Part shown: positions 1-58,613 of the stretch, one piece after another
Position numbering within the stretch: the stretch's first letter is position 1
How the letters are laid out: each line of letters opens with the position of its first letter
Assembly (NCBI GenBank): GCA_016195565.1
Contig: JACPZK010000026.1
Coordinates: 1 to 63,598 of the forward strand
Source: Nitrospirota bacterium
GTDB taxonomy: Bacteria; Nitrospirota; Thermodesulfovibrionia; Thermodesulfovibrionales; UBA1546
Direction of reading: 5' to 3'
Length of the DNA: 63,598 nucleotides
Program-made: the position numbers and the translations under genes
Notes under the pieces: model-generated
What the model was told of the DNA's origin: nothing
Seen by the model: the letters and a program-made list of their open reading frames with translations, nothing else
The model's database searches: none

Positions 1-208
1 CAGACACAGCTTCGCCACGCATCTGCTTCAGAGCGGCGTCAACATCAGGGAGGTGCAGAGCCTTCTCGGACACAAGAATGTCGAGACGACTATGATTTAC
101 ACTCATGTCTTGCGCGACATGTCTAATGCGCCACAAAGCCCACTTGATACGCTTTACGGAAAACACAGTGACGAAAAAAGAGAGATTACCACGCTGCGCT
201 CGCAATGA
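1..208 (+). CDS. Integron-type tyrosine recombinase, C-terminal end only
   Basis: The gene enters from the left edge; the reading frame starts at base 2 and ends at a TGA at 206-208. The visible peptide begins [12 protein letters not shown] and continues through [17 protein letters not shown] to a QSPLD segment. This is the C-terminal catalytic region of phage-integrase-type recombinases: the Arg of the RHSFATHLL box, the His of LLGHK and the Tyr nucleophile of MIYTH are all present. The wording and the following SPLD segment fit integron integrases (IntI) best. The last 11 or so residues ([10 protein letters not shown]) are encoded by a copy of the dispersed cattgcgag-type repeat, so the native C-terminus has been replaced or extended. 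Any cassette array would lie outside the window. Confidence 0.8.
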
Positions 209-211
209 CAA
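182..211. repeat. Dispersed repeat family A, half copy
   Basis: Half copy of the tgtcattgcgag...gcaatgaca inverted repeat (gagattaccacgctgcgctcgcaatgac). It overlaps the 3' end and stop codon of the recombinase gene. Confidence 0.7.
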
Positions 212-255
212 TAAAGGATGCCCATATCATCTTGCTTGTAATTATCCGGCATTGA

Positions 256-2958
256 TTAATGGATTAAGTTTTTCACCCTCTCCCTTAGCTTATCAGCAAA
301 CAACTGATATTTGTCTCTGCCGTGCTGTTCTCCGGTTATGTCCAGCAATGACGGATAAAAAGGCTTATCAAAACGTATTGTTATTTTTTTAAATCTCGGC
401 AGGAATGCGCCTTTTGGCAATGCCTCAAAACTTCCCCTTATCATTGCAGGGACAACAGGCACATGAAGTTCAAGAGCAAGAATGCCGATGCCTTTTTTAA
501 ATTCCATGAGATTCCCATCATAAGACCTTCCGCCTTCAGGAAATATGAAGAGGGCTTTGTTGTTTTTCAATACATAGGCAGAAAGCTGGAGCGCTTTTCC
601 CAGATATGTCTCAGGGTCTATTGGGATAACGTGAGCAAGCCTCGCAAAAAAGGCAGTCAGCCTGCTTGTGAAATATTTCTGAAATCCCTGAAAGTAAAGT
701 GTCCTGTAAATATTTAGAGGGAGAGCGGCAGCGACTGCAAAGCCGTCCAGATTGCTGCAATGGTTTGAGGCGATTATAAACGGGACATTAGGGATATTCT
801 CTACCCCTTTAACTTCAAGCCTGAAAAATATTCTGAAGAACATTTTGATAATCCCCATGAGGAGTGATACAAAAAACCATTCTACTGCACCTTGTTTAAG
901 GCCGACTTTTTTCTTCTCTTCCTCAGAAGGCTCCTGAGAAAAAACTGCCGAGAGTGTTGTTTCTGTTTTTTCTGCTTCAGAGGCTAATCCCCGACCCCTG
1001 ACCCCTAACCCCTTCATTTTCTCCACTATCTCTCCAACTGTCTGGATATCTGATGCAAAGGCCTCAGGGAGTTTTATGGAAAATTTATTTTCAAGGCTGA
1101 CAACAAGCTCTATCCTCTGAAGCGAATCAAGCCCGAGGTCAAGTTCAAGGTTGTCTTTGGCTTGAATAGGCATAGGTTCTTTAAGCAGAGGCGTTAAGCA
1201 TTCAATGACATTTCTGCCTGTTTCATCTGCCATAAGTTCTTTATCTTCACTTTTAACTTTCAACTTTTCACTCTTAACTTTTATCGGGTCTTTAATCATG
1301 AACCTTCTCAGTTTTCCGAGAGGAGTCCTCGGCAGAGGTTCAGGGTAAAGAGTAAACCCTTTAATCCTCATGTAAGGCGGCAGTTTGCCTGAGATACGGC
1401 TCAGATCCCATCCCAGCGCCTCATGGATATTGCCTGTCTGTTGCTGCCTTGCATAGTCAATGTCAGGGACAATGATTGCATGAAGGGCTTCTATCCTGCC
1501 TTTTTCTTCAAGGCCCAGCACGCAGATTTCCTTAATAAGCGGTATCTTTGAATATTCTTTTTCTACCTCTTCAGGATATATGTTTTTGCCTGAACCGAGA
1601 ACGATTACTTCCTTTATGCGTCCTGTTATAAACAGGTATCCGTCTCCGTCAATATATCCAAGGTCTCCGCTGAAAAAATAGTTGTCTTTGATTGCCTGCT
1701 CTGTTGCGGAGGGGTTTTTATAATAGCCCTTCATTACCATTGGGCCCCTGATTGCAATCTCTCCTTCCTTCATCAAACCTAATACACTTCCGTCCGCAGG
1801 GTTTATTATTTTTATCTCCACGGAAGGCAGAGGTTTTCCGGTAGAGCCGGGCTTCCGCTTGCTCATCGGGTTGAATGTGACAACAGGAGATGTCTCTGTA
1901 AGGCCATAGCCTTCAAGCACTGTAAAGCCAAGCGCCTCAAGGCCGCGCATTACCTCAGGGTCAAGCCTTGCTCCTCCGCTTGCAAAAAACCTGAACCTGT
2001 TTCCAAGCGCATTATGAACGGGTTTGAGTATTGCCTTGCTGATATTAATGCCTGTTTTCTTTCTCAGACTGCCGGAAAATTTCAACAGGGTTTTCATTAA
2101 CAATGGCGCGGGCTCTGGAAGTTTTTTAAATTTATCCATAATCCCGTTTTTTATCATCTCAAGCAGTTGAGGAACGCCGACAAGAATAGTAACGCCGCTG
2201 TCTTTCATTGATGCGGTAATGTCAGGCCCCTTTAAACTCGGGGAATATGTTATTGCCGCGCCTAAAAAAAGCGGCACAAGGAATGTGGACATGAACGGGT
2301 AGGTATGATGCAGAGGCAGAAGCGAAAGGACATTGTCGGATTTTGTGATTACGCCTGCCTTTATCAGAGCCTCCGCATCAGAGCAGAAATTTCCGTGAGT
2401 CAGCATCACGCCTTTAGGAATCCCTGTTGTCCCTGATGTATAGATGATAGATGCGATATCCTCAGGCGATATCTCTGGATAAGGGACTGTTTCTTTAAAC
2501 CCCGTGGGAAGCGCTGCTTCTATCGGGGTAAATCCGCATATCTCCTTAAAATCAGAAGAATCAATGTTTATTTTCCTTATATCCAGCCCTGCGGCTGCTT
2601 CATTTGCATTTGCTTCTGTCTTTGAGTTGAAAAAGATAATCTTTGATTCAGAATCAATCAAAAGATTTCGCACTGTCTCAGCATTCAACTGTGAGTCTAT
2701 CGGGACTGCAATTGCGCCAGCCATCATGATTCCTAAGTATGAGGCGCACCATTCAGGCCTGTTCTCCGAGAATATCGCAATCCTGTCAGCCTTGCTGATT
2801 CCTGTTTTTATCAGGCAGGATGCGATGGCTTTTGAATCTGAGGCAAATGCGCCGTAGGTTAGCGTCTTCCATGTGCGGTCAAAGTAATGGAAGGCAATAT
2901 TATCCCCGTGCTTTTCCGATGTGTTTAAGAATATGCTGTGGATAGTGTTATCAGCCAT
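256..2958 (-). CDS. Three-domain acyl-activating enzyme: AMP-forming ligase, acyl carrier domain, PlsC acyltransferase
   Basis: 900 residues. Residues about 10-555 are an AMP-dependent acyl-CoA/acyl-ACP synthetase: YTSGTTGIPKG near residue 172 and GYGLTETSPV are the ATP/adenylate motifs of long-chain fatty acid ligases. Residues about 580-650 are an acyl carrier domain with GLDSL, Ser612 being the phosphopantetheine site. Residues about 690-900 are a 1-acylglycerophosphate acyltransferase (PlsC) domain with NHCSNLD (H733-D738, HX4D) and FPEGGRS (EGxR). The order suggests activation of a fatty acid, loading on the built-in carrier and transfer to a lysophospholipid, like Aas but with an internal ACP; this is inference. 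Two low-complexity stretches in the linkers (about 559-572, [12 protein letters not shown], and about 648-658, GVRGRGLAS) are dispersed repeats read in frame. The first hydrolysable start is the ATG at 2958. Confidence 0.88.
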   Translation of the reverse strand: MADNTIHSIFLNTSEKHGDNIAFHYFDRTWKTLTYGAFASDSKAIASCLIKTGISKADRIAIFSENRPEWCASYLGIMMAGAIAVPIDSQLNAETVRNLLIDSESKIIFFNSKTEANANEAAAGLDIRKINIDSSDFKEICGFTPIEAALPTGFKETVPYPEISPEDIASIIYTSGTTGIPKGVMLTHGNFCSDAEALIKAGVITKSDNVLSLLPLHHTYPFMSTFLVPLFLGAAITYSPSLKGPDITASMKDSGVTILVGVPQLLEMIKNGIMDKFKKLPEPAPLLMKTLLKFSGSLRKKTGINISKAILKPVHNALGNRFRFFASGGARLDPEVMRGLEALGFTVLEGYGLTETSPVVTFNPMSKRKPGSTGKPLPSVEIKIINPADGSVLGLMKEGEIAIRGPMVMKGYYKNPSATEQAIKDNYFFSGDLGYIDGDGYLFITGRIKEVIVLGSGKNIYPEEVEKEYSKIPLIKEICVLGLEEKGRIEALHAIIVPDIDYARQQQTGNIHEALGWDLSRISGKLPPYMRIKGFTLYPEPLPRTPLGKLRRFMIKDPIKVKSEKLKVKSEDKELMADETGRNVIECLTPLLKEPMPIQAKDNLELDLGLDSLQRIELVVSLENKFSIKLPEAFASDIQTVGEIVEKMKGLGVRGRGLASEAEKTETTLSAVFSQEPSEEEKKKVGLKQGAVEWFFVSLLMGIIKMFFRIFFRLEVKGVENIPNVPFIIASNHCSNLDGFAVAAALPLNIYRTLYFQGFQKYFTSRLTAFFARLAHVIPIDPETYLGKALQLSAYVLKNNKALFIFPEGGRSYDGNLMEFKKGIGILALELHVPVVPAMIRGSFEALPKGAFLPRFKKITIRFDKPFYPSLLDITGEQHGRDKYQLFADKLRERVKNLIH
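985..1015. repeat. Low-complexity ccctgacccctaac repeat inside a coding region
   Basis: The stretch ccccgacccctgacccctaa lies in the linker between the carrier and acyltransferase domains of the acyl ligase and is read in frame as GVRGRGLAS. It separates two well-conserved domains, so it is tolerated as linker. Confidence 0.55.
1245..1283. repeat. Dispersed repeat family C (cttttaactttcaactttt), in frame in acyl ligase
   Basis: Runs of cacttttaactttcaacttt type, read on the minus strand as [12 protein letters not shown] between the ligase and carrier domains. The same word appears in kdsB, queC, the radical SAM gene and several intergenic regions of the window. Confidence 0.75.
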
Positions 2959-3030
2959 TCTTATTCATTATCTGAAAACAGAAATAAAATAGCAAATATT
3001 AAGATGATGCCGAAAAATAGACATAGAAGG

Positions 3031-3110
3031 TTGTCATTGCGAGCAAAGCGAAGCAATCTCGTAGTTTCTGATGAGATTGCCACGAACCCTTAGGGTTCTC
3101 GCAATGACAG
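3031..3110. repeat. Dispersed repeat family A, full inverted copy
   Basis: Inverted repeat between the divergent acyl ligase and hisI genes: left arm ttgtcattgcgagcaaagcg, right arm ending ttctcgcaatgacag. An inner pair (aacccttagggtt) adds a small palindrome. About 80 bp in total. Confidence 0.8.
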
Positions 3111-3207
3111 CTAAATTAACGGTTTCAGAATTCTCTAATGTCGCTCAAAGGGGTTCGACAACAGAATATTATTTTATGCTAAAATCAAAGCGGTTGATGG
3201 AGGAATT

Positions 3208-3543
3208 ATGATACAGGAATTGAAATTTGATGAGAAAGGGTTAATCCCTGCAATTATACAGGATGCGGAAAGCAATGAAGTCCTGATGATGGCTTATATG
3301 GATAAAACATCTCTTGAAAAGACTTTGAAAACAGGATTTACGCACTTCTGGTCGCGCTCAAGGAAGAAATACTGGATGAAAGGAGAGACTTCCGGAAATG
3401 TGCAGGAAGTTAAGGAAATCCTTTATGACTGCGATGAGGACACCCTGCTTGTAAAAGTAACCCAGCGCGGCGCAGGCGCCTGCCACACAGGAGAGAGAAC
3501 CTGCTTTTTCAGAAGCATCAAATTTAGAGCAATAGCACAGTAG
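3208..3543 (+). CDS. hisI: Phosphoribosyl-AMP cyclohydrolase
   Basis: 111 residues, the usual length of stand-alone HisI, which opens the ring of phosphoribosyl-AMP in histidine biosynthesis (third step, cytoplasm). Seen in the sequence: [33 protein letters not shown], the Asp-rich YDCDEDTLL metal site and the [15 protein letters not shown] Zn/Mg site with two Cys. There is no fused HisE domain. The ATG is preceded by a good Shine-Dalgarno (tggaggaatt, 3198-3207). The gene stands alone, with no other his genes in the window. It converges on kdsD across a 73-base gap. Confidence 0.96.
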
Positions 3544-3574
3544 CTCAGTAGTTTTTAAGAAAGATTGTTTGGGA

Positions 3575-3608
3575 CTGCTGGACTGTTGCTCTACTGCTCT
3601 GCCGCTCT
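3575..3608. repeat. Dispersed repeat family D (gctctactgctctgc)
   Basis: Low-complexity run actgttgctctactgctctg between the convergent hisI and kdsD genes. The same word recurs at 51.8, 57.0, 57.7, 58.1 and 58.5 kb. Confidence 0.7.
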
Positions 3609-8691: not shown

Positions 8692-10380
8692 TTAAGAGCG
8701 CTTTTCCTCTCTGCCTTTTTTCATCTCTATTTCGCTCTCGTCATATTGAAACAAGGCGCGCTTTTCTTTCAAAGAAGCGGCTATAAATTCTCTGAATAGC
8801 GGGTGAGGATCCGTCGGCCTTGATTTAAACTCAGGATGAAACTGGCATCCTAAAAACCACGGATGGCCTTCCACTTCTATTATCTCAACAAGCTCTCCGT
8901 CAGGGCTTGTTCCGCTTATCTTCATCCCGTGCCGTGAGAGTATTCCTTTATATGCATTGTTAAATTCATATCTGTGCCTGTGCCTTTCTGAGATTTCCTT
9001 TATGCCGTAAGCCTTGAATGCATTTGTATTGTTTTCAAGAACACAGGGATATGCTCCAAGCCTCATCGTGCCTCCCTTTTCAGAGACATCAGTCCTTTCT
9101 TCTATCCTGCCTTTCCTGAAATCAAACCATCTCTCCATGAGATAAATTACAGGGTCTTTTGCATTCAGGTCAAACTCTGTGCTGTTTGCGGTAAGCCCGC
9201 ATACATTCCGTGCATACTCAATCACAGCGCACTGCATCCCAAGGCATATCCCGAAATAGGGAATCTTTTTCTTGCGGGCATATCTTACAGCCTCAATCTT
9301 GCCTTCAATCCCCCTGTAACCAAATCCTCCGGGCACGAGGATGCCGTTTGCATCCGATAAATATTTATCTGCTCCGTGGACTTCTATCTCTTCAGAATCA
9401 ATCCACTGCAGATTTACCCTTGCATCATTTGCGATTCCGCCGTGGATAAGGGCTTCCATCAGGCTTTTGTATGAATCCTTAAGCCCTACATATTTGCCGA
9501 CTATGGCAATAGTTACTTCATGTTTCGGCTCTTTTAACTTTCTTACTATATCTTTCCACTGCATCAGGTCAACATCTTTGGCAGGGAGCTTAAGTTTGCT
9601 GACAATCTGCTGGTCAAGCCCTTCTTCGCTGAGCGCCATAGGCACCTCGTATATTGTATCCACATCCATTGCCGTGATGACTGAGTCGCCGTCAAGGTTA
9701 CAATGGAGCGCTATCTTTTTCTTTGCCTCAGGAGTGATAGGCTTGTCTGTTCTGCATAAGAGCAGGTCAGGCTGAATACCGATTGCGCGCAGCTCCCTTA
9801 CACTGTGCTGTGTGGGTTTTGTCTTAAGCTCGCCGGCGGTCTTTATATAAGGCACCAGCGTAAGATGCATATAAAGAACGTTTTCCCTTCCTACGTCATA
9901 GCGCATCTGCCTTATTGCCTCAAGGAACGGAAGGCTCTCGATATCGCCGATGGTGCCGCCTATCTCAACTATAACTACATCATTATTATCGCTTACTGAT
10001 TTTATGGCGCGCTTTATCTCGTCAGTTAGATGAGGCACAACCTGAACCGTGTCTCCGAGGTAATCGCCGCGCCTTTCTTTTGTTATGACATTGTAATATA
10101 TCTTTCCTGTCGTATAATTATTTGCCTGAGAGGTTCTTATATGCGTGAATCGCTCATAATGCCCGAGGTCAAGGTCTGTCTCTGCGCCGTCATCTGTTAC
10201 GAAGACCTCGCCATGCTGAAACGGGCTCAGCGTGCCCGGGTCAACATTGATATAAGGGTCAAGCTTCTGGATTGTTACTTTCAGCCCCCGCGCCTCAAGA
10301 AGGGCGCCTGTTGCAGCCGCAGCAATGCCTTTTCCCAGCGACGATACAACTCCGCCTGTTACGAAGATAAACTTAGCCAT
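8692..10380 (-). CDS. pyrG: CTP synthase
   Basis: 562 residues, slightly longer than usual because of a charged C-terminal tail ([10 protein letters not shown]). The synthetase half begins [16 protein letters not shown] with the P-loop and contains the [13 protein letters not shown] segment; the C-terminal half is a class I glutamine amidotransferase with nucleophile motif GICLGMQC and the late CQFHPEFKS His-Glu pair. Makes CTP from UTP, ATP and glutamine. Its start overlaps the 3' end of kdsB by 22 bases; in this context it supplies CTP for CMP-KDO. Confidence 0.97.
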
Positions 10381-11147
10381 TTCTTCACCCTCTCTAAGTC
10401 CTGCGGTGTATCAACACCCACAGTCTCGCAAGTCGTTTCTTTTACTTTTATGCGAAATCCATTCACGAGCACGCGAAGCTGTTCAAGCTTCTCTGTTTTC
10501 TCTAATTCCACGGGTTCCATTTTTGCAAGATTTAAAAGCACATCACGCCTGTAACTGTAAAGGCCGAGATGCTTATAAAAGTTGAAAGTTGAAAGTTGAA
10601 AGTTGAAAGTTTGTAATTCAAATCTTCTTTTTAACTCCTCACTTTTAACTTTCCACTGGTCTCTGTCAAACGGTATCGGCGCTCTTGAAAAATACATGGC
10701 AAAGCCTTCTTTATCAAAAACAGCCTTAACGACATTGGGGTCAAATATTTCTTCAGGGTCTTCTATTTTTTTTATCAGGGTTCCCATTGCCGCCCTTTTG
10801 TCGTCAAGCAGCCTGATAACGTCGTCTATCATCTCCGCCCTTATGAGCGGCTCATCTCCCTGAACATTGACAATTATATCATAATCCAAAGAAGCGGCGA
10901 CCTCTGCTATGCGGTCTGTGCCTGATGCATGTTCCTTTGCGGTCATTACAGCCTTGCCGCCGAATTCAATCACGGTTTTAAATATGGCCTCGCTGTCAGT
11001 TGCAACGATTACATCTTCTGCGAGCTTTGATTTCTTTGAATTTTCATACACATGCCGTATCAAAGGTTTGCCATTTAGGGGTGCAAGGGGCTTTCCCGGA
11101 AAACGGGTTGACTCATAACGGGCAGGGATAATAACAATCGCTGTCAT
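10359..11147 (-). CDS. kdsB: CMP-KDO synthetase (3-deoxy-manno-octulosonate cytidylyltransferase)
   Basis: 262 residues. Activates KDO with CTP. Seen: [16 protein letters not shown] at the N-terminus, NVQGDEPL near residue 95, and the [12 protein letters not shown] segment of the sugar-binding region. Between FDRDQW and YKHLGL the usual short connection is enlarged by residues about 164-190 ([20 protein letters not shown]), which are translated low-complexity repeat DNA. The extra loop falls next to a conserved element but keeps the frame. First gene of kdsB-pyrG. Activity with the insertion is inferred, not shown. Confidence 0.94.
10578..10657. repeat. Dispersed repeat family C with four tandem gttgaaa units, in frame in kdsB
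   Basis: aagttgaaagttgaaagttg continues as a perfect 7-bp tandem and is followed by the inverted arm cacttttaactttccac. The whole element is translated inside KdsB. Confidence 0.85.
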
Positions 11148-25240: not shown

Positions 25241-25306
25241 TTGTCATTCCCGCGAAAGCGGGAATCCAGAGAAAAGACTGGATTCCGTGTCAAGCACGGA
25301 ATGACG
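25241..25306. repeat. Dispersed repeat family B (tcattcccgcgaaagcggga), full copy
   Basis: ttgtcattcccgcgaaagcg ... caagcacggaatgac between glcF and the transaldolase gene, in two nested inverted pairs (cccgcgaaagcggg; ttccgtgtcaagcacggaa). Confidence 0.9.
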
Positions 25307-32951: not shown

Positions 32952-32956
32952 AAACA

Positions 32957-33051
32957 AGTTAGAAGTTAAGAGTTGAGAATTAAAAATTAAGGAAAATTTT
33001 ACAACTCTTGTCCGTATAACTTTCAACTTTTAACTTTTAATTTCTAACTTT
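32957..33051. repeat. Dispersed repeat family C between infB and rbfA
   Basis: agttagaagttaagagttga, then an inverted arm actttcaacttttaactttt: a hairpin of low-complexity arms separating infB from rbfA. Confidence 0.8.
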
Positions 33052-34453: not shown

Positions 34454-34533
34454 CTGTCATTGCGAGAACCCGAAGGGTTCGTGGCAATCTTTCTGCAAAA
34501 GCTTGAGATTGCTTCGTTTCACTCGCAATGACA
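34454..34533. repeat. Dispersed repeat family A, intergenic
   Basis: ctgtcattgcgagaacccga to actcgcaatgacaa, an inverted copy in the gap between nrnA and the IMPase gene. Confidence 0.85.
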
Positions 34534-40440: not shown

Positions 40441-42111
40441 ATGCCTGATATAAAGGTTCTTCCTGTTGACTTAAGAAATAAAATCGCTGCCGGAGAGGTT
40501 GTTGAACGGCCTGCCTCTGTTGTGAAGGAACTCATAGAAAACGCAATTGACGCTAAAAGCACAGAGATAAATATAGAAGCGCTTTACGGAGGCAAGAGGC
40601 TAATCAGGGTTTTGGACAACGGCACAGGCATGGATGAAGAAGACGCGCGTTTGTGTTTTGAGCGCCATGCCACAAGCAAGATCAGCAGTGATGCGGATCT
40701 GTTCAATATTACGACAATGGGGTTTCGCGGAGAAGCGCTTCCTTCAATAGCTTCCGTTGCAGGGATAAAACTTATTACAGGCTTAAAAGGCGCTGATTCC
40801 GGAATATCAGTAGAAATCGCCGGAGGAGAAATAAAAGAGATAAAAGCATCCCCTTTTTCAGGCACGTCTGTTGAGGTGAAGGATTTATTCTTCAACACGC
40901 CTGCGAGAAAAAAATTCCTGAAGACAAACAGCACAGAGCTTTTTCATATCATTGATACTGTAACAAAGGAAGCCCTCTCGCATTATGAGATTGGATTCAG
41001 GCTTTTGACTGAAAATCAGGAAACCATGATTTTCCCAAAGGCGTCAGGACTCAGGGAAAGGCTGATGCAGGTATACGGCGATGAATTTGTAAACGGGCTG
41101 ATAGAGGTTCATAAAGAAGAGGGCAAGGGGCTTATAAAAATAAGCGCCTTTGTCTCTGACATAGGGAATTTCAGGAACAGCAAGGCGCATCAATTCATAT
41201 TCATAAATAAGCGGCCGATAAAAGATGCTTCGCTTTCCCACGCGGTATACAGCGCTTACGAAGGAATACTTCCAAAAGATAAGCACCCGGTATTTTTTCT
41301 CTTCCTGGAGCTTGACCCCCGGAAAATTGATTTTAATGTCCATCCAACAAAGAGAGAGGTCAGGTTTGAAGACAAAGAGTCTGTTTACCGGTTTGTGAAT
41401 ACAGGCATACGCGATGCCGTAAAAGGCGATAGGGCAGGGCATGTAAAACCATTTACAGAATCCCCATCAATGCAGTATGACTCTGCAAATTATGAAGGAA
41501 CAGGTGAGGCACTGCCTTCTCATGTCTCGGAGAATCTCGAACTGCCGTATAAACCGTCGCTGCCATTTGTATATCTCGGCGATACATTCATCGCTGTTTC
41601 AGGAAGAGGAGGGCTGAGCCTTATAGACCATCACGCAGCCCATGAAAGAATACTTTACGAAAAATTTCTTAAAAAAATAAAGCTGGACTCGCATCAGATG
41701 CTTTTCCCAAGACAGGTAAATCTTTCGCATAAGGAATACATGGTTATACTTGAAAACAAAACTCTCCTATATGAGCTTGGCATTGAGATTGATGACTTCG
41801 GACATGACGCGATAATTATCCGTTCGCTTCCTGACGCGCTTGCCGGGGGTGACCTGAGAGGAATACTCTCAGATGCCGCATCAGCAATCATAGAAGGAGA
41901 CAGGCCTGACAGAACTGCAAAGGAAGAGATTGCAGCAAGGATTGCCTGCCACAAATCTGTTCGCGGGAAAGAGATACTGAACCAGTCAGAGGTCTCGCAG
42001 CTTCTTTCTGACCTTGAAAACACAGAGCATCCTGACCAATGCCCTCACGGCAGGCCGACACGGATTTTCTTTTCACTGGATGATTTAAAGAGGATGTTTA
42101 AGAGGAAATAG
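40441..42111 (+). CDS. mutL: DNA mismatch repair protein MutL
   Basis: 556 residues from ATG 40441 (MPDIKVLPVDLRNKIAAGEV); earlier in-frame ATGs would add an unlikely hydrophobic tail. GHKL ATPase motifs: ELIENAIDA, DNGTGMDEE and GFRGEALPS. The C-terminal part has IDHHAAHERILYE, a match to the DQHAxxExxxxE endonuclease motif with His in the second position, plus ACHKSVRG and CPHGRPT, so nicking activity is expected. It overlaps the next gene's GTG start by one base. Confidence 0.96.
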   Translation: MPDIKVLPVDLRNKIAAGEVVERPASVVKELIENAIDAKSTEINIEALYGGKRLIRVLDNGTGMDEEDARLCFERHATSKISSDADLFNITTMGFRGEALPSIASVAGIKLITGLKGADSGISVEIAGGEIKEIKASPFSGTSVEVKDLFFNTPARKKFLKTNSTELFHIIDTVTKEALSHYEIGFRLLTENQETMIFPKASGLRERLMQVYGDEFVNGLIEVHKEEGKGLIKISAFVSDIGNFRNSKAHQFIFINKRPIKDASLSHAVYSAYEGILPKDKHPVFFLFLELDPRKIDFNVHPTKREVRFEDKESVYRFVNTGIRDAVKGDRAGHVKPFTESPSMQYDSANYEGTGEALPSHVSENLELPYKPSLPFVYLGDTFIAVSGRGGLSLIDHHAAHERILYEKFLKKIKLDSHQMLFPRQVNLSHKEYMVILENKTLLYELGIEIDDFGHDAIIIRSLPDALAGGDLRGILSDAASAIIEGDRPDRTAKEEIAARIACHKSVRGKEILNQSEVSQLLSDLENTEHPDQCPHGRPTRIFFSLDDLKRMFKRK

Positions 42112-43907
42112 TGCACAAAGGCTATCTTATCCTTATCCTCCATGCCCACTTGCCTTATATCAGGCACCCCGAACACGAATACTTTCTTGAAGAAAACTGG
42201 CTTTACGAGGCAATCACAGAGAGCTACATACCGCTGATTGATGTATTTGACAGGCTTCTGAACGACAATATTGATTTCAGAATTACGCTCTCTCTGAGCC
42301 CGGCGCTTGTTGAGATGTTCAATGATTCTCTTTTAAGAGAAAGGTATCTGAAATATATAAACAATCTTATCGAGCTTTCAGAAAAAGAGCTTCTCAGAAA
42401 CAGAGGTGATATATCGTTTGAGCCTCTTGCAAGGATGTATAACAACAGATTCAAGAGAGTCAAGTTTCTGTATGAAGAATCCTGTAAGAAAGACCTGACC
42501 GCTGCCTTTAGAAGATTGGGGGAAACAGGAAAGGTTGAGATTATAACCACTGCTGCCACTCACTCATATTTGCCTGTCCTGAGTATGTATCCTCAGGCAG
42601 TAAGGGCTCAGATAATGGTTGCAAAGACACATCACATAAAAAACTTTGGGAAAGCGCCTGCCGGGATATGGCTGCCTGAATGCGGCTATTACAATGGGGC
42701 AGACAGAGTGTTGGCAGAAGCAGGCATAAAATTCTTTTTTATGGATACACATGGGATACTGAACGGAACGCCCACGCCGAGATACGGCGCATACAAGCCT
42801 GTAGCCTGCCCTTCAGGAGTTATTGCATTCGGAAGGGATATTGAGTCATCAAAACAGGTTTGGAGCTCGATAGAAGGCTATCCCGGAGATTTTGCTTACA
42901 GGGATTTTTACAGGGATGCCGGATTTGACCTGCCGATGGATTATGTCAGACCGCACATACATCCTGACGGCATAAGAACATATACAGGCATAAAATACTA
43001 CCGTATCACAGGCAAGACAGAGGATAAGATGCCTTATGTAAGAGAACAGGCATTGGCTAAAGCAGAAGAGCACGCTGAAAACTTTATGCTCAGCAAAAAA
43101 TGCCAGATAGAGTTTCTGTACAACAATGTGGGGTTTAAGCCTGCGATAACAGCTCCGTATGATGCCGAACTTTTCGGACACTGGTGGTTTGAAGGGCCGG
43201 ACTGGCTTGATTTCCTTATGAGAAAAGTCGAACAAACGCGTGCACAGGATGTTTTCAGGACAATCACGCCGTCAGAATATTTAAGCGAACCCCGCACGAG
43301 CCGTTGGCTCACAAAGGGGCATGAAAATAGTCATTCAAACGATAACAACAATGTCATTCCCCGACTTGATCGGGGAATCCAGACGCGGGCCCCGCGAAAG
43401 CGGGGAACTCTGAAGAAGAACTGGATTCCGCATCAAGTGCGGAATGACAAATTAAATGCATTTTCGGAGCAAAATCATGAATTCCAATACATAACACCTT
43501 CAATGTCAAGCTGGGGTTATAAAGGGTATAACGAGGTGTGGCTTAACAGTTCAAACAGCTGGATTTACAGGCATCTGCACAGGGCAGTCGAAAAAATGAC
43601 AGAGCTTGCAAATATGTTCCCGCGTGCTGATGGTTTGCTGAAGAGGGCGCTTAATCAGGCTGCAAGAGAAATTCTTCTGTCACAGCATAGTGACTGGGCC
43701 TTTATAATAAAAACAGGGGCCGCAGCCGAGTACGCTTCAAGCAGGCTCGCTGAGCATATAGAGAGATTTAACGGTCTATACGCGGCAATCAGGAAAGGCG
43801 ATATAAACGAGGCGTGGCTGCTTGAGATTGAGAATAAAGACAAACTATTTCCGGAGATAGATTATCGCGTCTATTCAGACAGTGAAAGAAGGTTGTCAAA
43901 AGGATAA
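42111..43907 (+). CDS. GH57-family glycoside hydrolase, probable glycogen branching enzyme
   Basis: 598 residues from a GTG that shares a base with the mutL stop. ILHAHLPYIRHPEHEYFLEE is the GH57/DUF1957 N-terminus; the catalytic Glu lies in GIWLPECGYYN and the acid Asp in TAPYDAELFGHWW. Predicted to be a branching enzyme or alpha-glucanotransferase, not proven. Residues about 414-446 (NNVIPRLDRGIQTRAPRKRG and following) come from a family B repeat read in frame between two conserved blocks. The 3' end overlaps the convergent LysR gene by 37 bases. Confidence 0.9.
   Translation: MHKGYLILILHAHLPYIRHPEHEYFLEENWLYEAITESYIPLIDVFDRLLNDNIDFRITLSLSPALVEMFNDSLLRERYLKYINNLIELSEKELLRNRGDISFEPLARMYNNRFKRVKFLYEESCKKDLTAAFRRLGETGKVEIITTAATHSYLPVLSMYPQAVRAQIMVAKTHHIKNFGKAPAGIWLPECGYYNGADRVLAEAGIKFFFMDTHGILNGTPTPRYGAYKPVACPSGVIAFGRDIESSKQVWSSIEGYPGDFAYRDFYRDAGFDLPMDYVRPHIHPDGIRTYTGIKYYRITGKTEDKMPYVREQALAKAEEHAENFMLSKKCQIEFLYNNVGFKPAITAPYDAELFGHWWFEGPDWLDFLMRKVEQTRAQDVFRTITPSEYLSEPRTSRWLTKGHENSHSNDNNNVIPRLDRGIQTRAPRKRGTLKKNWIPHQVRNDKLNAFSEQNHEFQYITPSMSSWGYKGYNEVWLNSSNSWIYRHLHRAVEKMTELANMFPRADGLLKRALNQAAREILLSQHSDWAFIIKTGAAAEYASSRLAEHIERFNGLYAAIRKGDINEAWLLEIENKDKLFPEIDYRVYSDSERRLSKG
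43352..43449. repeat. Dispersed repeat family B in the GH57 gene
   Basis: tgtcattccccgacttgatc to catcaagtgcggaatgac with an inner pair gcgggccccgcgaaagcgg; about 98 bp, in frame. Confidence 0.9.
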
Positions 43908-45943: not shown

Positions 45944-45960
45944 GCACCCTCCACACAAAA

Positions 45961-46037
45961 AGTTAAGAGTTGAGGGTTAGGAGTTAAGAAAAATTAACTT
46001 TCAACTTCTAACTTTTCACTCTTAACTCTTAACTCTG
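45961..46037. repeat. Dispersed repeat family C, intergenic
   Basis: agttaagagttgagggttag then the inverted arm aactttcaacttctaacttt, upstream of the zinc ribbon gene and downstream of the tRNA. Confidence 0.85.
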
Positions 46038-46057: not shown

Positions 46058-46058
46058 T

Positions 46059-49551: not shown

Positions 49552-51285
49552 CTATCTGATATATGCCTCGGTGACGTATCTTCTCATCATCCTGTGGCTG
49601 TTGAAGTAGTAGGCATTTTTGCCTATGGCATTCTGCATCATTCGAATCCATGTATGTCTGTCGTTGTGATACATGGGGATTATGATGGCCTCAAGCTTGT
49701 TGTATAAATCATCAGCGTCTCTTTGGTCTATTGCGTCAACATCGTCTGTAAGCATTGTTTCTGTCGGGCTTGGACCAATAGCCCATCCTGTAAATCCCTC
49801 AATATGGCCCTCTATCCACCAGCCGTCAAGCACGCTGAAGTTTATTACGCCGTTATGAGCTGCCTTCATGCCGCTTGTGCCTGACGCCTCATGCGGCCTG
49901 AGAGGCGTGTTAAGCCATATATCAACACCGGAGACAAGCTTAAGGGCTTTCTCCATGTCATAGTTTTTAAGGTAGGCTATCTTAACTTTTCCTTTTAACT
50001 TTTCTTTTATTACGTGGATTTTTTCTATCAGCCATTTGCCGTGGTCGTCTTTCGGATGCGCCTTGCCTGAGTAAACAAGCTGTATCTTTCCTGAGGCAAT
50101 CCTTTCTAACCTGTCAATATCGCTGAAAATAAGGTCAGGGCGTTTGTACGCAGTTGCCCTGCGCGCAAAGCCTATTGTAAGGGTGTCGTAATCCATGCCT
50201 GCTTTAGTTTCTGAATTTACAAAATCAATAAAAACCTTTTTTGCTTCAATATGGGCTGTCCATAATTCTTCTTCGGGGATTCTGCCTACTCTCACAAAAA
50301 GTTCAGGTTCGTTTGCCCATCCCGGCAGGTATTTGTCATAAAGCTTTTTCAGGCTGTCGCAGGTCCAGGTATAGCTGTGCACGCCGTTTGTTATTGCCGA
50401 TATCTCATAACCGGGGAACATGTCCTTTGAGACATCTCTGTGCTTTTTAGCAACACCGTTAACGAACTCGCTCAGGTGTAAAGCAAGCATAGTCATATTT
50501 AGATTGTCCTTGCCTCCGAGATCTTTCAGCACATTTAAAGGTATTAATTCCCCCATTACCCGCAGGATCAGGTCATATGAGAATTTGTCATGGCCGGCCT
50601 CAACAGGAGTGTGGGTTGTAAACACGCAGATATTTTTTACCCTGTCAACATCCCACACAAGCCGCTCGTCCCATACGTCTTCTATCGGCCGTTTATATCT
50701 GAGCAGCAATTCCAGCGTAAGAAAACCGGCATGTCCCTCATTCATGTGGTATTTTTTTATCTCAAATCCGAGTTCATAGAGCATCCTTACACCGGCTATG
50801 CCGAGGACAATTTCCTGTTTGAGCCTGTATACATGGTCGCCTCCGTAGAGGTAAGAGGTAATCTCCCTGTCATCCTGAGAGTTTTCTGCAACATCAGTAT
50901 CAAGAAAAAACACAGGGATGCTTCCGCCTGTCAGACTTTTCACAATGTAAAGCCACGCCTGAACCGCAACATCTCTTCCTTCTATCTGCACATATACCTT
51001 TGCCGGAAGAAGGGTCATCTGTTTTGACGGCTCCCATAGTGTCGGCATCTCCGTCTGCCTTCCCCTTTCGTCTATCTCCTGTGTGAAATATCCTTTTTTG
51101 CTGAGAAGGGTTACAGCAGCCATCGGGAGCTTAAGGTCCGCGCCTGATTTAATCGTATCTCCTGCGAGCACTCCAAGGCCGCCGCTGTAAGATGGGATAT
51201 CGTTGGCAATTCCTATCTCCATTGAGAAATAGGCAATCTTCGGGTCTTTTGTGAATTCCTGCAGTTCGGGCAAGAACTGGTTCAT
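49552..51285 (-). CDS. glgP: Alpha-glucan phosphorylase
   Basis: 577 residues, the short form (TIGR02094). [20 protein letters not shown] at the N-terminus, HMNEGHAGF, and the C-terminal PLP site [20 protein letters not shown] with the pyridoxal Lys in GMKAA. Releases glucose 1-phosphate from glycogen. It complements the GH57 enzyme at 42-44 kb. Its ATG overlaps the queC stop by four bases. Confidence 0.95.
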
Positions 51286-52109
51286 ATAGCTTTAATCCCT
51301 GCCTCTTTGAATCCCTTTGCCCTGAAAATGCAGCTGTCGCATTTTCCGCAAGGCGTAACGGTGAATCGGTGAATCGGTGAATCGGTGAATCGTTTTGCTT
51401 CTGCCCCTCTGTAACTTTTCACTTTTAACTTTTCACTTTTAACTTTTTTAGGCTGCGGGTCATAACAGCTCCATGTCAGGGAATAGTCCAGCCCTAATTC
51501 TTTCCCCTTTCTAATTATCTCTGCCTTTGTCAGATGAAGAAGAGGGGCTTTAATGCTGAATCTGATTTTTCCTTCCACCGATGCCTTTGTTGCAAGGTTT
51601 GCCATTTTTTCAAAGGCCTTCAGATATTCGGGACGACAGTCAGGATAGCCGCTGTAATCTACCGCGTTTGCGCCGATAAATATATTCTCAGCCTTAAGCG
51701 CCTCTGCCCATCCAAGCGCAAACGAAAGAAAGATTGTGTTGCGTGCAGGGACATAGGTGACGGGAATAGAGCAGCAGGACTTTGTGGAAATTTTTTTTAC
51801 CACTGAACTACTGCACTGCTGCTCTTCTGCTCTATTTTTCGGCACTTCCATCTCTGATGTCAGAGCCGAGCCGCCGATTGCTCTTAAATCAAATTTTATT
51901 ACGAGATGTTTTTTTACTTTTAATGATAGGGCGACTTTTTTTGCCGCCTCAAGCTCTATTTTGTGCCTTTGATTGTAATCAAAGCTCAGGGCATAAACTT
52001 CATAACCCTCGTGTTTTGCTATTGCTGCTGTTGTGGAGGAATCTACCCCGCCGCTGAGAAGGACAACCGCTTTTTTAGCGTTGTGCCTTCTGCTTTTAGT
52101 AAACGTCAT
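51282..52109 (-). CDS. queC: 7-cyano-7-deazaguanine synthase
   Basis: 275 residues from ATG 52109 ([20 protein letters not shown]). [13 protein letters not shown] is the PP-loop and the zinc site is [11 protein letters not shown] with [13 protein letters not shown]. Makes preQ0, the precursor of queuosine in tRNA. Two separate repeat-derived stretches interrupt it in frame: about residues 93-115 (family D) and about 221-250 (four gaatcggt units plus family C), the second between the first and second zinc-ligand Cys. All four Cys and the flanking motifs remain, so function is plausible. It overlaps the upstream gene's end by 14 bases. Confidence 0.92.
51360..51448. repeat. Four tandem gaatcggt units and family C repeat in queC
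   Basis: ggtgaatcggtgaatcggtg continues for four units of 8 bp at 51360-51392; then acttttcacttttaactttt at 51411-51448. Both are read in frame. Confidence 0.9.
51768..51834. repeat. Dispersed repeat family D in queC
   Basis: tagagcagcaggactttgtg ... actgctgctcttctgctcta, an inverted pair, encodes [15 protein letters not shown]. Confidence 0.85.
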
Positions 52110-53160: not shown

Positions 53161-54999
53161 CTACTTCAGCCTCCTTCGCGCAGCTATATTGGAGATAAGG
53201 TATAAAAAAGCCATAAGCATCACTGCCGGAATTGTAAGCCAGCTATGTGAAAACAGTGAAAGTCCTGTAGAAAATAGCGGTTTAAGCAATATCAAAAGCA
53301 GCAGGAAAACAAATAACCACAGGAATAAAGTTCCTGAAAGAATTCTCCCCCAATAAATATGGGCTATTCCCGGCGGTGCAAAAGAAAGGATACTGATTGT
53401 GCGCCTTTTTTTCTTCTGGAGTTCCTGCACCTCAAGCTGTTTTGCTACCCGTATCCTTGAATCAAGGGCATCAAGTTTAATAAGAGACTTATAGCATAAG
53501 GAGCACATTTCCCCCCAGAGCTTTCCTTTCCCGCACTTTCCGCAGAGTATTACACCGCACCGTTGACACCTGTAGGCCCTCTCTTTGAATGCCGAGTCCA
53601 TAATGTAAAACAGCGCCAACAGGGCAATAGAGACGATGACAGAAGAGGCAGAATTCAGGGGGGAGATTTTTATGAGTCCCCGTGCGCCGGTTTCCGCATA
53701 TTCCCACATGACTGACATTGGAAGGTTTTCATCAGTGACAAGTCTGTTTGGATTCCGGCTTGCGGCTGACGAGAATTGGGATACGGATTCACTGCTGAGT
53801 TTTATGGCTTCGGTGAAATATTCCTCTCCCTTTGCAAAGTCAAGTGTTTCTCGCGATACCTGGCTGAGATTGTAATAAGCCGATGCAAGCGGTTTCAATT
53901 CTATGGATTTTTTATATGATTCTTTTGCCGCAGCCATATCATTGACGCCAGCATAGGAATTTCCGAGATTGACGTAAGCCCTTGGGTCTGGATATGAGGC
54001 CAAAAGTTTTTTATAGGCAGCTATTGCCTCTTCATAGCGTTCCTCCCGTTTGAGCGCAAGGCCGTAGGAAAAAAGGGATATAAAATCATCTTTATTTTTA
54101 AGAACGGAAGCGGCGTATTTATTGTCTCTGCTTTCATTGACAGCCACAATAGCCCTGAGTTCGGGAGAGGGAGCGGAGAGAAACATGTTTATAATGTTCA
54201 GACAGAGAGGAGACAGAAGGAGAAGCAGAACAGATGCATAAACAACAGTCTTATTCATTCCTCTGAAATATAATCCCAGCAGAAACAGGGAGCCTGTCAT
54301 GAAGAATAAAGGGCCGAGAAAAGAGAGCGGGACAAGCAACATGGCAATTAAAATATTTTTCTTGCTTTCCTTAATATCATGAGATAAAAGAGGGATGTCT
54401 GTAAAAAGCCTTACAGCTAAAACCACAGCAAGCACAATAACAAAAGAAAGCATGAAGCTTGCGGTAAAAAGCCCGGATATACTCATCAACCACCAGAAAT
54501 TTTTTTTGTAAGCCTTAAATCCCTTAATAGTATAATCAAGGCTCTCAAACATGCCGCTTGCTGAAGGCGAAAAACTTATTTTTGCCATTTCAAAATATGC
54601 GGGGGGGAGATTCGGAGAATGCTTTACCGCCTCTGTTAAAAGGCTCTTGGCTCTTGACGGGTCAGCGTGGGCTTTTTTTATCAAGACATACGAATAAGGC
54701 TCATTGTTTTCAAGCCCCCTGTCAAGGTGCGACTCATAGATGTCTTCAGCGAAGGATGAGACTGAAAATGCAAAAGTAAAAATTAAAAATGCTAAAGTAA
54801 GGAAAAAAATATTTTTGACACCTTCGTAAAAAGTGTCATTGCAAGCGGAGGTCCCTCGCCTGTCATTGCGAGCAGAGCGAAGCAATCTTGTTTTATCGCT
54901 CAGGGCAGTCTCCGCCGAAGCAATCTTAAAGCAGGCTCGGGATAAACTCCGCAATCTCACAGTTTGCAACTCATTGAAAAACTTAGATTGCTTCGTCAT
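53161..54999 (-). CDS. TPR membrane protein with zinc-ribbon, start inside a dispersed repeat
   Basis: 612 residues from ATG 54999. The first 55 residues (RLRSLSRACFKIASAETALS and following) are translated repeat; a signal/anchor helix starts near residue 63 (NIFFLTLAFLIFTFAFSVSS). Then several membrane helices, a TPR block (EEAIAAYKKLLASYPDPRAY, VNLGNSYAGVNDMAAAKESY), and near the C-terminus a double zinc ribbon (YRCQRCGVILCGKCGKG, CSLCYKS) plus two helices. No ATG, GTG or TTG occurs between the repeat and the signal helix in this frame, so the start must lie in the repeat. Function unknown; gene order suggests a secretion or pilus-related unit. Confidence 0.72.
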   Translation of the reverse strand: MTKQSKFFNELQTVRLRSLSRACFKIASAETALSDKTRLLRSARNDRRGTSACNDTFYEGVKNIFFLTLAFLIFTFAFSVSSFAEDIYESHLDRGLENNEPYSYVLIKKAHADPSRAKSLLTEAVKHSPNLPPAYFEMAKISFSPSASGMFESLDYTIKGFKAYKKNFWWLMSISGLFTASFMLSFVIVLAVVLAVRLFTDIPLLSHDIKESKKNILIAMLLVPLSFLGPLFFMTGSLFLLGLYFRGMNKTVVYASVLLLLLSPLCLNIINMFLSAPSPELRAIVAVNESRDNKYAASVLKNKDDFISLFSYGLALKREERYEEAIAAYKKLLASYPDPRAYVNLGNSYAGVNDMAAAKESYKKSIELKPLASAYYNLSQVSRETLDFAKGEEYFTEAIKLSSESVSQFSSAASRNPNRLVTDENLPMSVMWEYAETGARGLIKISPLNSASSVIVSIALLALFYIMDSAFKERAYRCQRCGVILCGKCGKGKLWGEMCSLCYKSLIKLDALDSRIRVAKQLEVQELQKKKRRTISILSFAPPGIAHIYWGRILSGTLFLWLFVFLLLLILLKPLFSTGLSLFSHSWLTIPAVMLMAFLYLISNIAARRRLK

Positions 55000-55019
55000 T
55001 TCATTCCTCGCAATGACAA
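54833..55019. repeat. Dispersed repeat family A, compound copy at a gene start
   Basis: Nearly 190 bp: agtgtcattgcaagcggagg, cctgtcattgcgagcagagc, and ctcgcaatgac at the end. Several arms in both orientations; it supplies the start codon of the TPR membrane protein. Confidence 0.85.
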
Positions 55020-56857: not shown

Positions 56858-56933
<76 letters not shown>

Positions 56934-58066: not shown

Positions 58067-58080
58067 AAAGCATTATATCA

Positions 58081-58121: not shown

Positions 58122-58240
58122 TAATCCACACCCTGTTGCAGAGAAGATACAGGGGTTATGGCGACTATTCACAAAAAACCTTTATTTTTCAATCAGGCAT
58201 AATGGGCATGCTTATTGCTTCTTACATTTATAGATTATAA

Positions 58241-58273
58241 GGAACTGGATTCCGCATCAAGTGCGGAATGACA
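58241..58273. repeat. Dispersed repeat family B, half copy
   Basis: ggaactggattccgcatcaa followed by gtgcggaatgac; one arm only. Confidence 0.75.
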
Positions 58274-58310
58274 TTTTATTGTGTATTGTTATTTGACAGA
58301 TGTTTTTAGC

Positions 58311-58339
58311 TTGACAAAAGATGTGGGAAATGATTAAAT
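58311..58339 (+). promoter_or_regulatory. Predicted promoter of the porin gene
   Basis: Consensus -35 ttgaca (58311-58316), 17-base spacer, -10 ttaaat (58334-58339). Confidence 0.55.
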
Positions 58340-58529
58340 TTATCATATTTTTATAAAATTCGCTCTTGCGGAACTCCATTTTATGGAGCTGATTTCATGA
58401 GAAAAGGAGGTGACGGCAGAGCAAAGAAGCGGCAGTAAATCCGCCTTACTTATGGCGGACAAAGAAGTAAAAAAGTAAAAAGGGCAAATCCCGTTTTTAA
58501 CGGGAAAAATACTGAACCAAACCGAAAAC

Positions 58530-58613
58530 AGCGCAGCAGCGCAATAGCGCAACAGAGCAGGAGTAAAAAATTAAAAAACTACTGCTCTACTGAACTTCTG
58601 CTCTACTGCTCTA
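58530..58613. repeat. Dispersed repeat family D, inverted pair
   Basis: agcgcagcagcgcaatagcg ... actgctctactgaacttctg, two arms just before the porin gene. Confidence 0.85.

What the first reader, a model, noticed from the sequence alone, without database searches (positions are those of the whole stretch)
182..58613. Four dispersed repeat families inserted in frame in conserved genes
Families A (tgtcattgcgag), B (tcattcccg...cggaatgac), C (aacttttaactttc) and D (gctctactgctctgc) are spread over the window, mostly as inverted arms. Many copies lie in coding sequence, and every one seen keeps the frame: acyl ligase, kdsB, radical SAM (three), nrnA, GH57, queC (two). They fall in linkers or loops, with motifs on both sides preserved. 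In behaviour this is like Rickettsia palindromic elements; I am not aware of such a description for this lineage.
Basis: partly seen in the sequence, partly recalled or inferred. Interest (0 to 1): 0.8.

Follow-up and report, generated by a model that had tools for sequence, protein, structure and literature searches.

The report
Hairpin repeats swapping inside core genes
In this uncultured Nitrospirota bacterium, short hairpin-shaped DNA repeats, most of them built from 4-5 copies of a 7- or 8-letter word facing an inverted set, sit in frame inside loops of core enzymes, and related species often carry different words in the very same loops.

Summary
The grouping needs changing. A belongs partly to a MITE: a subset (140 or 195 nt) has 17-nt inverted ends, half of the sampled ones with 6-8 bp target duplications. 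B is a similar paired palindrome; both lie mostly between genes. C and D belong to a broader class: hairpins whose arms are 4-5 tandem units of 7 or 8 nt, in dozens of unit sequences; 48 of 104 such arrays lie inside genes (leuS, aspS, metG, purL, aroC, dapF, alr, kdsB, queC). At the same place in relatives an array is found in 29 of 47 comparisons, 24 of them different (controls 2 of 388 and 2 of 140), and sister genomes prefer different units. Frame keeping is best read as survivorship; in-gene periods are mostly 7/8, not multiples of 3. It works like Rickettsia palindromic elements but is not shown to be that family. How the 7/8-nt arms arise is unsolved: no target duplication detected, unique spacers, arms not mirror copies, purine strand inwards in 49 of 51 selected pairs.

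The parts
182..211 (-). Family A half element (single arm) beyond the end of the acyl-ligase gene
   Evidence: shared with L111
256..2958 (-). acyl-CoA ligase/acyltransferase-like gene carrying C-class arrays at 1246-1283 and 989-1013
989..1013 (.). heptamer array (CCCCTGA type) in frame in the acyl ligase; G001 has a TCAGC-type array at the same place
1246..1283 (.). C heptamer array in frame in the acyl ligase; same unit in G001, G003 and G007
3010..3109 (+). Family A MITE copy: left inverted end CCGAAAAATAGACATAG at 3010-3026, facing A arms 3032-3109, right end decayed (my reading); absent in G001 (L106) and G007 (L108)
3525..3608 (.). D-type octamer hairpin (inverted arms, 20-nt spacer), intergenic
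10359..11147 (-). kdsB; the loop between APIPFDRD and YKHLGLYS is made of C arrays
10578..10677 (.). C hairpin in kdsB; different 7/8-nt arrays in 11 of 12 same-family relatives compared by script, none in G009
19100..21658 (+). TIGR03960/TIGR03936 B12-radical SAM gene with three in-frame elements
19695..19737 (.). C array, site 1 of the radical SAM gene; relatives carry other heptamers, octamers or a CCCCCT palindrome here; L010 and L011 none
20880..20945 (+). A element, site 2 (between the two domains); relatives carry a CAGGATA/ATGCATC heptamer hairpin or other arrays at this site
21331..21401 (+). A element, site 3; of the relatives compared, present only in L002 (CG1_02_44_142)
25243..25305 (.). 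Family B paired palindrome, intergenic
32956..33050 (.). C hairpin between infB-like and rbfA-like genes (names are my reading of the ORFs); L005 has a GGGGTTA/CCAATCC heptamer hairpin at the same place
33433..34383 (+). nrnA-like gene with a C array at 33645-33677
33645..33677 (.). C array in frame in the nrnA-like gene
34455..34533 (.). A element, intergenic; absent in G001 (L129)
42111..43907 (+). GH57 glucan-branching-type gene with B insert
43353..43448 (.). Family B paired palindrome in frame in GH57; absent from the L119 orthologue
45958..46036 (.). C hairpin, intergenic, beside tRNA-Met (46059-46134)
51282..52109 (-). queC with three in-frame array sites
51352..51392 (.). octamer array (GGTGAATC) in queC
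51412..51447 (.). C array in queC, next to the octamer array
51768..51833 (.). D-type octamer arms in queC; absent in G009 (L114), a heptamer array instead in G011 (L116)
54834..55018 (.). cluster of A arms at and upstream of the 5' end of a gene at 53161-54885 (no NCBIfam match; TPR-like by my reading); absent in L118 and L114
57015..57104 (.). D octamer hairpin; a C arm at 56941-56968 lies beside tRNA-Ala (56858-56933)
58529..58613 (.). D octamer hairpin upstream of the ORF at 58621-60093

Best explanation
The genome carries two kinds of dispersed hairpin element, both kept inside genes only by selection. (1) A, and probably B, are paired palindromes of REP/MITE type. At least a subset of A is a 140- or 195-nt MITE with 17-nt inverted ends and 6-8 bp target duplications, so it was probably moved by a cut-and-paste transposase that is not seen here. 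They lie mostly between genes. (2) C and D belong to a class of hairpins whose two arms are separate tandem arrays of 4-5 units of 7 or 8 nt, purine-rich strand pointing inwards, with a short unique spacer. They abound in some Nitrospirota genomes and were not found in samples of others, and sister genomes favour different unit sequences. Either kind survives in a gene only where the total length keeps the frame, the register is stop-free and the protein tolerates a loop. Such permissive linkers are few, so successive waves refill the same ones and orthologues carry different repeats at the same place. Shown: presence, inverted arms, period, genic context, site sharing with unit turnover, MITE ends of A. 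Inferred: selection as the cause of frame keeping, and waves of new insertion rather than in-place rewriting. Not known: the enzyme that makes the 7/8-nt arms.
For: Tandem-period spectrum of an 863,598-bp sample: at score 15, period 7 = 70, 8 = 11, 14 = 11, every other period 5 or fewer, shuffles 0-0.3. 104 arrays scored for context: 48 in genes, 15 edge, 41 intergenic. In-gene arrays of any period: 7:32, 8:7, 14:6 of 67, multiples of 3: 16 of 67. Carriers: 21 of 35 proteins given exceed a curated NCBIfam cut-off. Relatives at 19 alignable of 95 array sites: array in 29 of 47 comparisons, 24 of them different in unit or period; random positions 2 of 388, positions outside or at edges of genes 2 of 140. 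Without kdsB and the radical SAM gene, which give 23 of the 47 comparisons: 12 of 24, 8 different. Orthologue pairs with G001: 81 pairs, 12 array sites, 4 shared, 3 of those with another unit. Units: AAAGTT type 52 of 104 own arrays vs 5 of 56 in G001; GATACAG/ATGCATC type 1 of 104 vs 27 of 56. A: inverted ends 33 hits genome-wide against 2 for the reversed control; 8 end pairs in the sample, 4 with an abutting perfect repeat of 6-8 bp. Model of KdsB: the insert region (159-168, 170-187) is the only part under pLDDT 50.
Against: In-gene arrays are still under-represented (48 of 104 against about 86% for random placement). The stop-free sign is modest: other five frames open 41% vs 27%. Some in-gene arrays have about the same length as the loop they occupy in distant homologues (two of three in LeuRS, the first in DapF, AroC), which fits rewriting as well as insertion. 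An intergenic spot also holds different heptamer hairpins in two genomes, where tolerance is a weaker explanation. Nine of 47 comparisons have no array but similar length. Genes come from my own hexamer-based caller; 8 of the 48 in-gene arrays lie within 25 residues of the called N end, where the start codon is uncertain. Six of the 52 in-gene rows have best period 21 and include ordinary protein repeats. The relatives used for the site test are partial genomes.
Confidence: 0.7

Rival explanations
1. In-place writing: a lineage-specific activity adds tandem 7- or 8-nt units at both sides of a break or stalled fork, so each hairpin is made new at its site rather than copied from elsewhere; old sites are rewritten in the current dialect.
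For: No flank repeat detected at 51 hairpins (mean shared word 3.69 vs 3.56 +- 0.13 shuffled); spacers of 24 own hairpins hardly more alike than shuffled (4.68 vs 4.44; 3 vs 4 pairs with 8 or more); consensus units of the two arms differ by 1-2 nt in 44 of 51 and the stem is no better in the symmetric register (0.718 vs 0.721); purine strand inwards in 49 of 51; arms 4.7 +- 0.8 units; present or absent between genomes, even within one family; a site with pieces of several unit types, atpF.
Against: No reverse transcriptase of PF00078 in the genome and no Ku in it or in 14 of 15 family relatives, some of them incomplete, so no known templated end-extension or end-joining machinery. A shared template does not explain arms that differ from each other. 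Polarity is weaker without selection for complementarity: 44 of 56 adjacent arrays run purine then pyrimidine, and 3 of 4 pairs in G026. Whole hairpins present in one species and cleanly absent in another (e.g. own C10 7976-8071 vs L137) also fit ordinary insertion.
Confidence: 0.25
2. Plain replication slippage with a 7-nt preference (the polymerase-footprint idea attributed to Mrazek 2007), acting on local sequence.
For: Period 7 dominates with no known element; heptamer excess is known in many bacteria (PMC4692102, PMC4679880, passages seen).
Against: The same unit recurs at unrelated sites: 722 unit pairs within one mismatch among 80 heptamer sites vs a mean of 168 with letters shuffled within units. 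Inverted partners, narrow copy number and patchy distribution are not expected.
Confidence: 0.1
3. The arrays are binding sites for a chromosome or RNA-binding protein, kept by selection (IHF/HU sites proposed for Geobacter; S1, Csp or Csr proposed for TAACTGA).
For: Narrow arm size and polarity; similar paired arrays in Geobacter metallireducens were read this way (PMC2700814, passages seen); 56 of 104 arrays are outside genes or at their edges.
Against: Nearly half lie inside genes, unit sequence changes between sister species at the same site, and sister genomes use different units.
Confidence: 0.1
4. All four families are RAYT-mobilised REPINs.
For: Seven Y1_Tnp matches in the genome; A and B are facing palindrome pairs; words of A, B, C or D occur within the fetched flanks of 6 of the 7 matches, one a C hairpin about 140 nt downstream of the Y1 ORF in L051.
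Against: The three Y1 genes whose own flanks I could read (L047, L049, L051) are bordered by GGGACA..TGTCCC-type repeats; A has inverted ends with target duplications. Flanks of the other four were not read in the gene's orientation.
Confidence: 0.05

Closest known systems
Rickettsia (and Wolbachia) palindromic elements, RPE
   Same: Short palindromes dispersed between genes and in frame inside conserved genes.
   Different: RPE are described as 105-146 bp elements (PMC2229807, passages seen). Here the abundant genic class has 7/8-nt tandem arms of varying unit and turns over at fixed sites. No sequence comparison with Rickettsia was made.
Intragenic GTAG/CGTC REPs (PMC3733652, passages seen)
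   Same: REPs inside coding genes in several bacteria, with the survivorship argument already stated there.
   Different: The conserved 12 nt of A contain neither GTAG nor CGTC; C and D have tandem 7/8-nt units.
Xanthomonas GGGAATC and Nostoc GGGGATT heptamer repeats (PMC4692102, passages seen)
   Same: Heptamer arrays dispersed in the genome; in Xanthomonas 70 and 75 convergent pairs, which I read as G-rich strand inwards, as here.
   Different: One unit was studied per genus and it is mostly intergenic (11% and 7% intragenic in the two Xanthomonas); here dozens of units, 48 of 104 arrays in genes, and unit turnover at orthologous sites.
Geobacter metallireducens paired octamer/heptamer sites (PMC2700814, passages seen)
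   Same: Four tandem heptamers found between and within genes; four tandem octamers in pairs on opposite strands at variable distance.
   Different: Read there as regulatory elements or IHF/HU sites; the passages seen contain no orthologue comparison of genic sites.
TAACTGA repeats of Beggiatoaceae (PMC4679880, abstract and passages seen)
   Same: Heptamer direct repeats, some in reading frames.
   Different: One unit, mostly just upstream of start codons, direct with one indirect exception, at protein ends when genic.
MITEs
   Same: A subset of A: inverted ends, target duplication, 140/195 nt, no gene inside.
   Different: No autonomous partner seen; the genic A copies lack these ends.

Membership tests
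Rickettsia palindromic elements | Palindromic element in frame inside conserved genes as well as between genes | tested here: met
Rickettsia palindromic elements | Sequence homology to RPE families | not tested
   No Rickettsia sequence was compared
Rickettsia palindromic elements | Gene product with the insert is made and active | not testable with these tools
   Needs proteomics or enzyme assays
REPIN/RAYT system | Two facing REP hairpins per element | tested here: met
   A: 44 convergent pairs among 115 arms, 23 arms unpaired
REPIN/RAYT system | Y1 transposase gene bordered by the same repeat | tested here: not met
   Three of seven Y1 genes readable (L047, L049, L051): bordered by GGGACA..TGTCCC repeats; A arms in the fetched flanks of 2 of 7 matches, several hundred nt from the Y1 match
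MITE (family A) | Terminal inverted repeats | tested here: met
   17-nt ends; 8 pairs in the sample, 33 single ends genome-wide; most A copies lack them
MITE (family A) | Target-site duplication | tested here: met
   4 of 8 pairs with an abutting perfect repeat of 6-8 bp, the other 4 without; no shuffled control was run
MITE (family A) | Autonomous partner with the same ends | tested here: inconclusive
   No end pair at 1-3 kb among the 33 genome-wide hits with up to 2 mismatches; more divergent ends were sought in the sample only
MITE (heptamer/octamer hairpins C, D) | Target-site duplication | tested here: not met
   51 hairpins, mean shared flank word 3.69 vs 3.56 shuffled, 1 of 51 with 6 or more; boundaries of the arms are fuzzy
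Heptamer simple sequence repeats | Tandem period 7 above all other periods | tested here: met
Heptamer simple sequence repeats | Mostly intergenic | tested here: inconclusive
   Enriched outside genes against random placement, yet 48 of 104 arrays lie in genes

The most novel reading that the evidence does not exclude
The 7/8-nt hairpins are not copied elements but products of an unknown, lineage-specific DNA-writing activity. It lays down 4-5 units of a genome-specific 7- or 8-mer on both sides of a site, purine strand inwards, and rewrites the same permissive loops of core enzymes and gene junctions again and again.
Probability: 0.25. Interest if true: 0.87.

Novelty: new variant of a known kind. 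Interest (0 to 1): 0.63.

Why it matters
In-frame palindromes are mainly known from Rickettsia, Wolbachia and some REPs. Here a lineage known from environmental genomes shows 7/8-nt arrays in genes at about five per 100 kb (48 in 864 kb), in tRNA synthetases and in purine, chorismate, lysine-pathway and LPS enzymes, and sister species often hold different sequences in the same loops. This gives a natural map of loops that tolerate any sequence, warns that odd loops in metagenome proteins can be repeat DNA, and makes the old question of why many bacteria have heptamer repeats testable: narrow arm size, polarity, presence or absence between close relatives, no target duplication detected.

Tried and rejected
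Source enzyme: Y1 transposases are present, but the three readable ones border another repeat. Reverse transcriptase PF00078 not found in the own genome. Ku found in 11 of 41 genomes, not in the own genome and in only one of 15 family relatives. Loss of the hairpin nuclease SbcD does not explain the arrays: over the cut-off in 4 of 41 genomes; the two of these that I sampled (G028, G023) had 1 and 0 arrays of period 7, 8, 14 or 16 in 140 and 80 kb, but G009, G019, G017 and G020 also lack it and had none; the own genome has one match below the cut-off. Foldback copying of one arm from the other: rejected, since the symmetric register is no better than the others. Assembly artefact: unlikely, because single-contig genome G026 has 22 arrays of period 7/8 in 140 kb and elements are shared between species with conserved flanks. 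Rfam: only two tRNAs in the window reached the gathering score. Whole-element similarity among heptamer hairpins was uninformative because shared units align by themselves (24 of 31 alignable over 80%); only the spacer test counts. Literature searches listed no paper that I recognised as describing such repeats in Nitrospirota; the library holds only CC-licensed PMC papers. PMC4060949 was seen in passages only and had nothing on heptamers. Mrazek 2007 and the Ogata RPE papers were not seen, only cited through other papers. The whole of no paper was read.

Rows dropped: one search aligned 15 of the 26 loci; one search lost kdsB loci on the minus strand, mended; L001 was left out as a duplicate of the G001 stretches; the printed output was cut in the middle, so its totals are not used.

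Full report
What was checked. The window is contig C26 of a 2.30-Mb draft genome. The closest public relatives of its TIGR03960 gene are Nitrospirota MAGs such as GWF2_44_13 and CG1_02_44_142. The words A, B, C and D exceed shuffled expectation in the window (B only weakly as a 10-mer), and A occurs 215 times in the genome against 0 for the reversed word. I sampled 863,598 bp, 37% of the genome, and called genes with a hexamer model of my own (855 genes, 90% coding). Gene names without a call (infB, rbfA, priA, TPR, PAS kinase) are my reading of the ORFs; that the named enzymes are essential elsewhere is recalled.

C and D are one class. In a scan of all periods 1-24 the sample has 70 arrays of period 7, 11 of period 8 and 11 of period 14 at score 15, no other period above 5, and shuffles 0-0.3. 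Units are many: AAAGTTA/G, ATTCAAA, GGGGATT, AGTCAGG, CGTTAAG, TGACCGC, CAGTAGAG and others; 56 distinct consensus units at 95 sites, many of them near variants. Relatives in the same family, except G009, show the same two periods, often with other units; 256 kb of Firmicutes loci show no 7 or 8, mostly multiples of 3. The trait is patchy: per 100 kb 13.0 in G001 and 15.7 in G026 (one contig, another family), 0 in 160 kb of G009 (same family), 0 in G019, G017, G020, G023 and G035 (80-100 kb each), one period-14 array in 140 kb of G028.

Anatomy. 53 inverted pairs, 51 distinct, from the own sample and relatives: arms 4.7 +- 0.8 units, 33.7 +- 5.9 nt; both arms the same period in all 51; consensus units of the two arms differ by 0, 1, 2 or 3 nt in 4, 22, 22 and 3 pairs; stem identity no better in the symmetric register than in other in-phase registers (0.718 vs 0.721, higher in 24 of 51). 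The left arm is richer in purine in 49 of 51 and G-in in 48 of 51, over 32 exact unit classes, many of them one-letter variants. Pairs were selected for complementarity, which also favours equal period, and some are orthologous between genomes. Without that selection, 56 adjacent array pairs within 70 nt give 44 purine-then-pyrimidine, 3 the reverse, 9 same-type, and 52 of 56 of equal period. In G026, 3 of 4 pairs have the purine arm on the left. Flanks show no target duplication and spacers are hardly more alike than shuffled ones.

Genes. By a merged scan (periods 7, 14, 21, score 13), 52 of 114 arrays lie in genes, 21 at edges, 41 between genes, against 86% in genes for random placement; octamers 8 in, 3 edge, 11 out of 22. 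By a second scan (periods 7 and 8, score 14): 48, 15 and 41 of 104. Six of the 52 have best period 21 and include ordinary protein repeats or low-complexity sequence; 8 of the 48 lie within 25 residues of the called N end and 1 near the C end. One search lists 43 genes with a heptamer or octamer array. I gave 33 of them, plus GH57 and one A-bearing gene, to NCBIfam (35 proteins, 3 without a match at 1e-10); 21 of the 35 exceed a curated cut-off: lgt, cobB, thiE, alr, prmC, leuS (3 arrays), aspS, metG, dapF (2), aroC, purL (3 array sites plus an A element), homoserine dehydrogenase, atpF, bioF, mnmA, tgt, comEC, a heptosyltransferase, kdsB, queC, TIGR03960. Against solved homologues, KdsB, QueC, Tgt and the second DapF array are extra residues; two of the three LeuRS arrays, the first DapF array and the AroC array occupy loops of similar length. 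The AlphaFold model of KdsB has mean pLDDT 84.7 and is below 50 in residues 159-168 and 170-187, the insert region; it matches KdsB crystal structures.

Frame. A unit of 7 or 8 nt passes through all three frames, so a pure long array is equally open in the three frames of a strand. A copy inside a called gene is open in that frame by construction. The other five frames of in-gene arrays are open in 99 of 240 cases, the six frames of intergenic arrays in 67 of 246; 14 of 41 intergenic arrays are closed in all six. The consensus unit is open on a strand in 35 of 48 in-gene, 22 of 41 intergenic and 4 of 15 edge arrays. In-gene arrays of any period: 7 (32), 8 (7), 14 (6), multiples of 3 (16), other (6), so the period is not set by codons. 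Frame keeping is what survival would leave; the sign of a stop filter is there but modest.

Same place, different repeat. Of 95 array sites, 19 have alignable flanks in at least one relative. An array is there in 29 of 47 comparisons: 16 with another unit, 8 with another period, 5 the same; 9 are shorter without array, 9 of similar length without array. Unit calls for low-scoring arrays are rough. Controls: random positions 2 of 388 comparisons at 178 sites; positions outside or at edges of genes 2 of 140 at 102 sites. kdsB and the radical SAM gene supply 23 of the 47; without them it is 12 of 24, 8 of them different. In kdsB, 11 of 12 same-family relatives tested by script carry another array, G009 none; the sequences are. 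Radical SAM site 2 holds A in this genome, a CAGGATA/ATGCATC hairpin in L001, L002, L003 and L005, octamers in L004 and L008, TCAGCTA heptamers in L007 and L009. The spot between the infB- and rbfA-like genes holds AAAGTT arms here and GGGGTTA arms in L005. With G001, 81 reciprocal orthologue pairs (26,941 aa) give 12 array sites: 4 shared (3 with different units), 5 own only, 3 G001 only. From the G001 side, 10 of 44 sites are alignable: 3 in-gene and 1 edge with a different array, 1 same, 5 none, two of which hold an A or B element in the own genome instead. Unit counts: AAAGTT type 52 of 104 own and 5 of 56 G001 arrays, GATACAG/ATGCATC type 1 of 104 and 27 of 56, ATTCAAA type 13 and 10.

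Families A and B. A arms face each other in 44 pairs among 115 arms, 64-158 nt, with 2 divergent pairs and 23 unpaired arms; of the 44, 34 lie outside genes, 5 at edges, 5 inside. A subset is bounded by CCGAAAAATAGACATAG ends: 8 pairs of 140-196 nt in the sample, 4 with abutting perfect duplications CTGATT, TAACAG, TTATAA and CTCTTCAA; 33 ends genome-wide. One such MITE lies inside a C-type array (C6 29258-29397). Where I looked, the genic A copies have no such ends. A varies from 0 to 215 exact words per genome in 41 genomes, own included. B: 51 clusters of the loose word TGTCATTCC, 14 of them in genes and mostly single words; by a strict pattern 11 facing pairs, 8 outside genes, 2 at edges, 1 inside (GH57). 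The GH57 copy is absent from L119.

Reading. I take A and B as REP/MITE-type palindromes and C and D as a class of 7/8-nt hairpins of unknown origin; both fill permissive loops by chance and survive by selection. The alternative that the hairpins are written in place is not excluded and is the bolder reading.

Noticed in passing
radical SAM site 1 in L002, L003, L105, L110; heptamer spacers in L002, L003, L120: Another palindrome (CCCCCCTTTACTAAAGGGGGG type, read as PPLPPLLKGGEGGF) occurs in the same linkers and is nested inside heptamer hairpin spacers.
   Followed up: partly
L009 near 3218-3300: A further in-frame repeat (MVRQAHHDKLCHPEPVEGS) next to a TCAGCTA heptamer array in the radical SAM gene.
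   Followed up: no
L058:14618-18727: purL of this genome carries three heptamer array sites (one a two-arm hairpin) and one A element in frame and still matches FGAM synthase from end to end.
   Followed up: partly
L047, L049, L051: Y1 transposase genes bordered by GGGACA..TGTCCC repeats, a different REP-like family.
   Followed up: partly
window:56858-56968 and 45958-46134: Both tRNA genes of the window lie close to a heptamer arm or hairpin.
   Followed up: no
window:11841-11924 and 12640-12723: 84-nt direct repeat, 82% identical, near the start of a priA-like ORF.
   Followed up: no
window:7204-7285: Two 40-nt copies 42 nt apart (93% identical), an in-frame duplication in a sensor-kinase-like gene.
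   Followed up: no
L137:9931-10004 and own C10 6171-6230: The 5' end of atpF in the own genome holds a piece of a GATGCAG array beside other units, like layers of successive repeats.
   Followed up: partly
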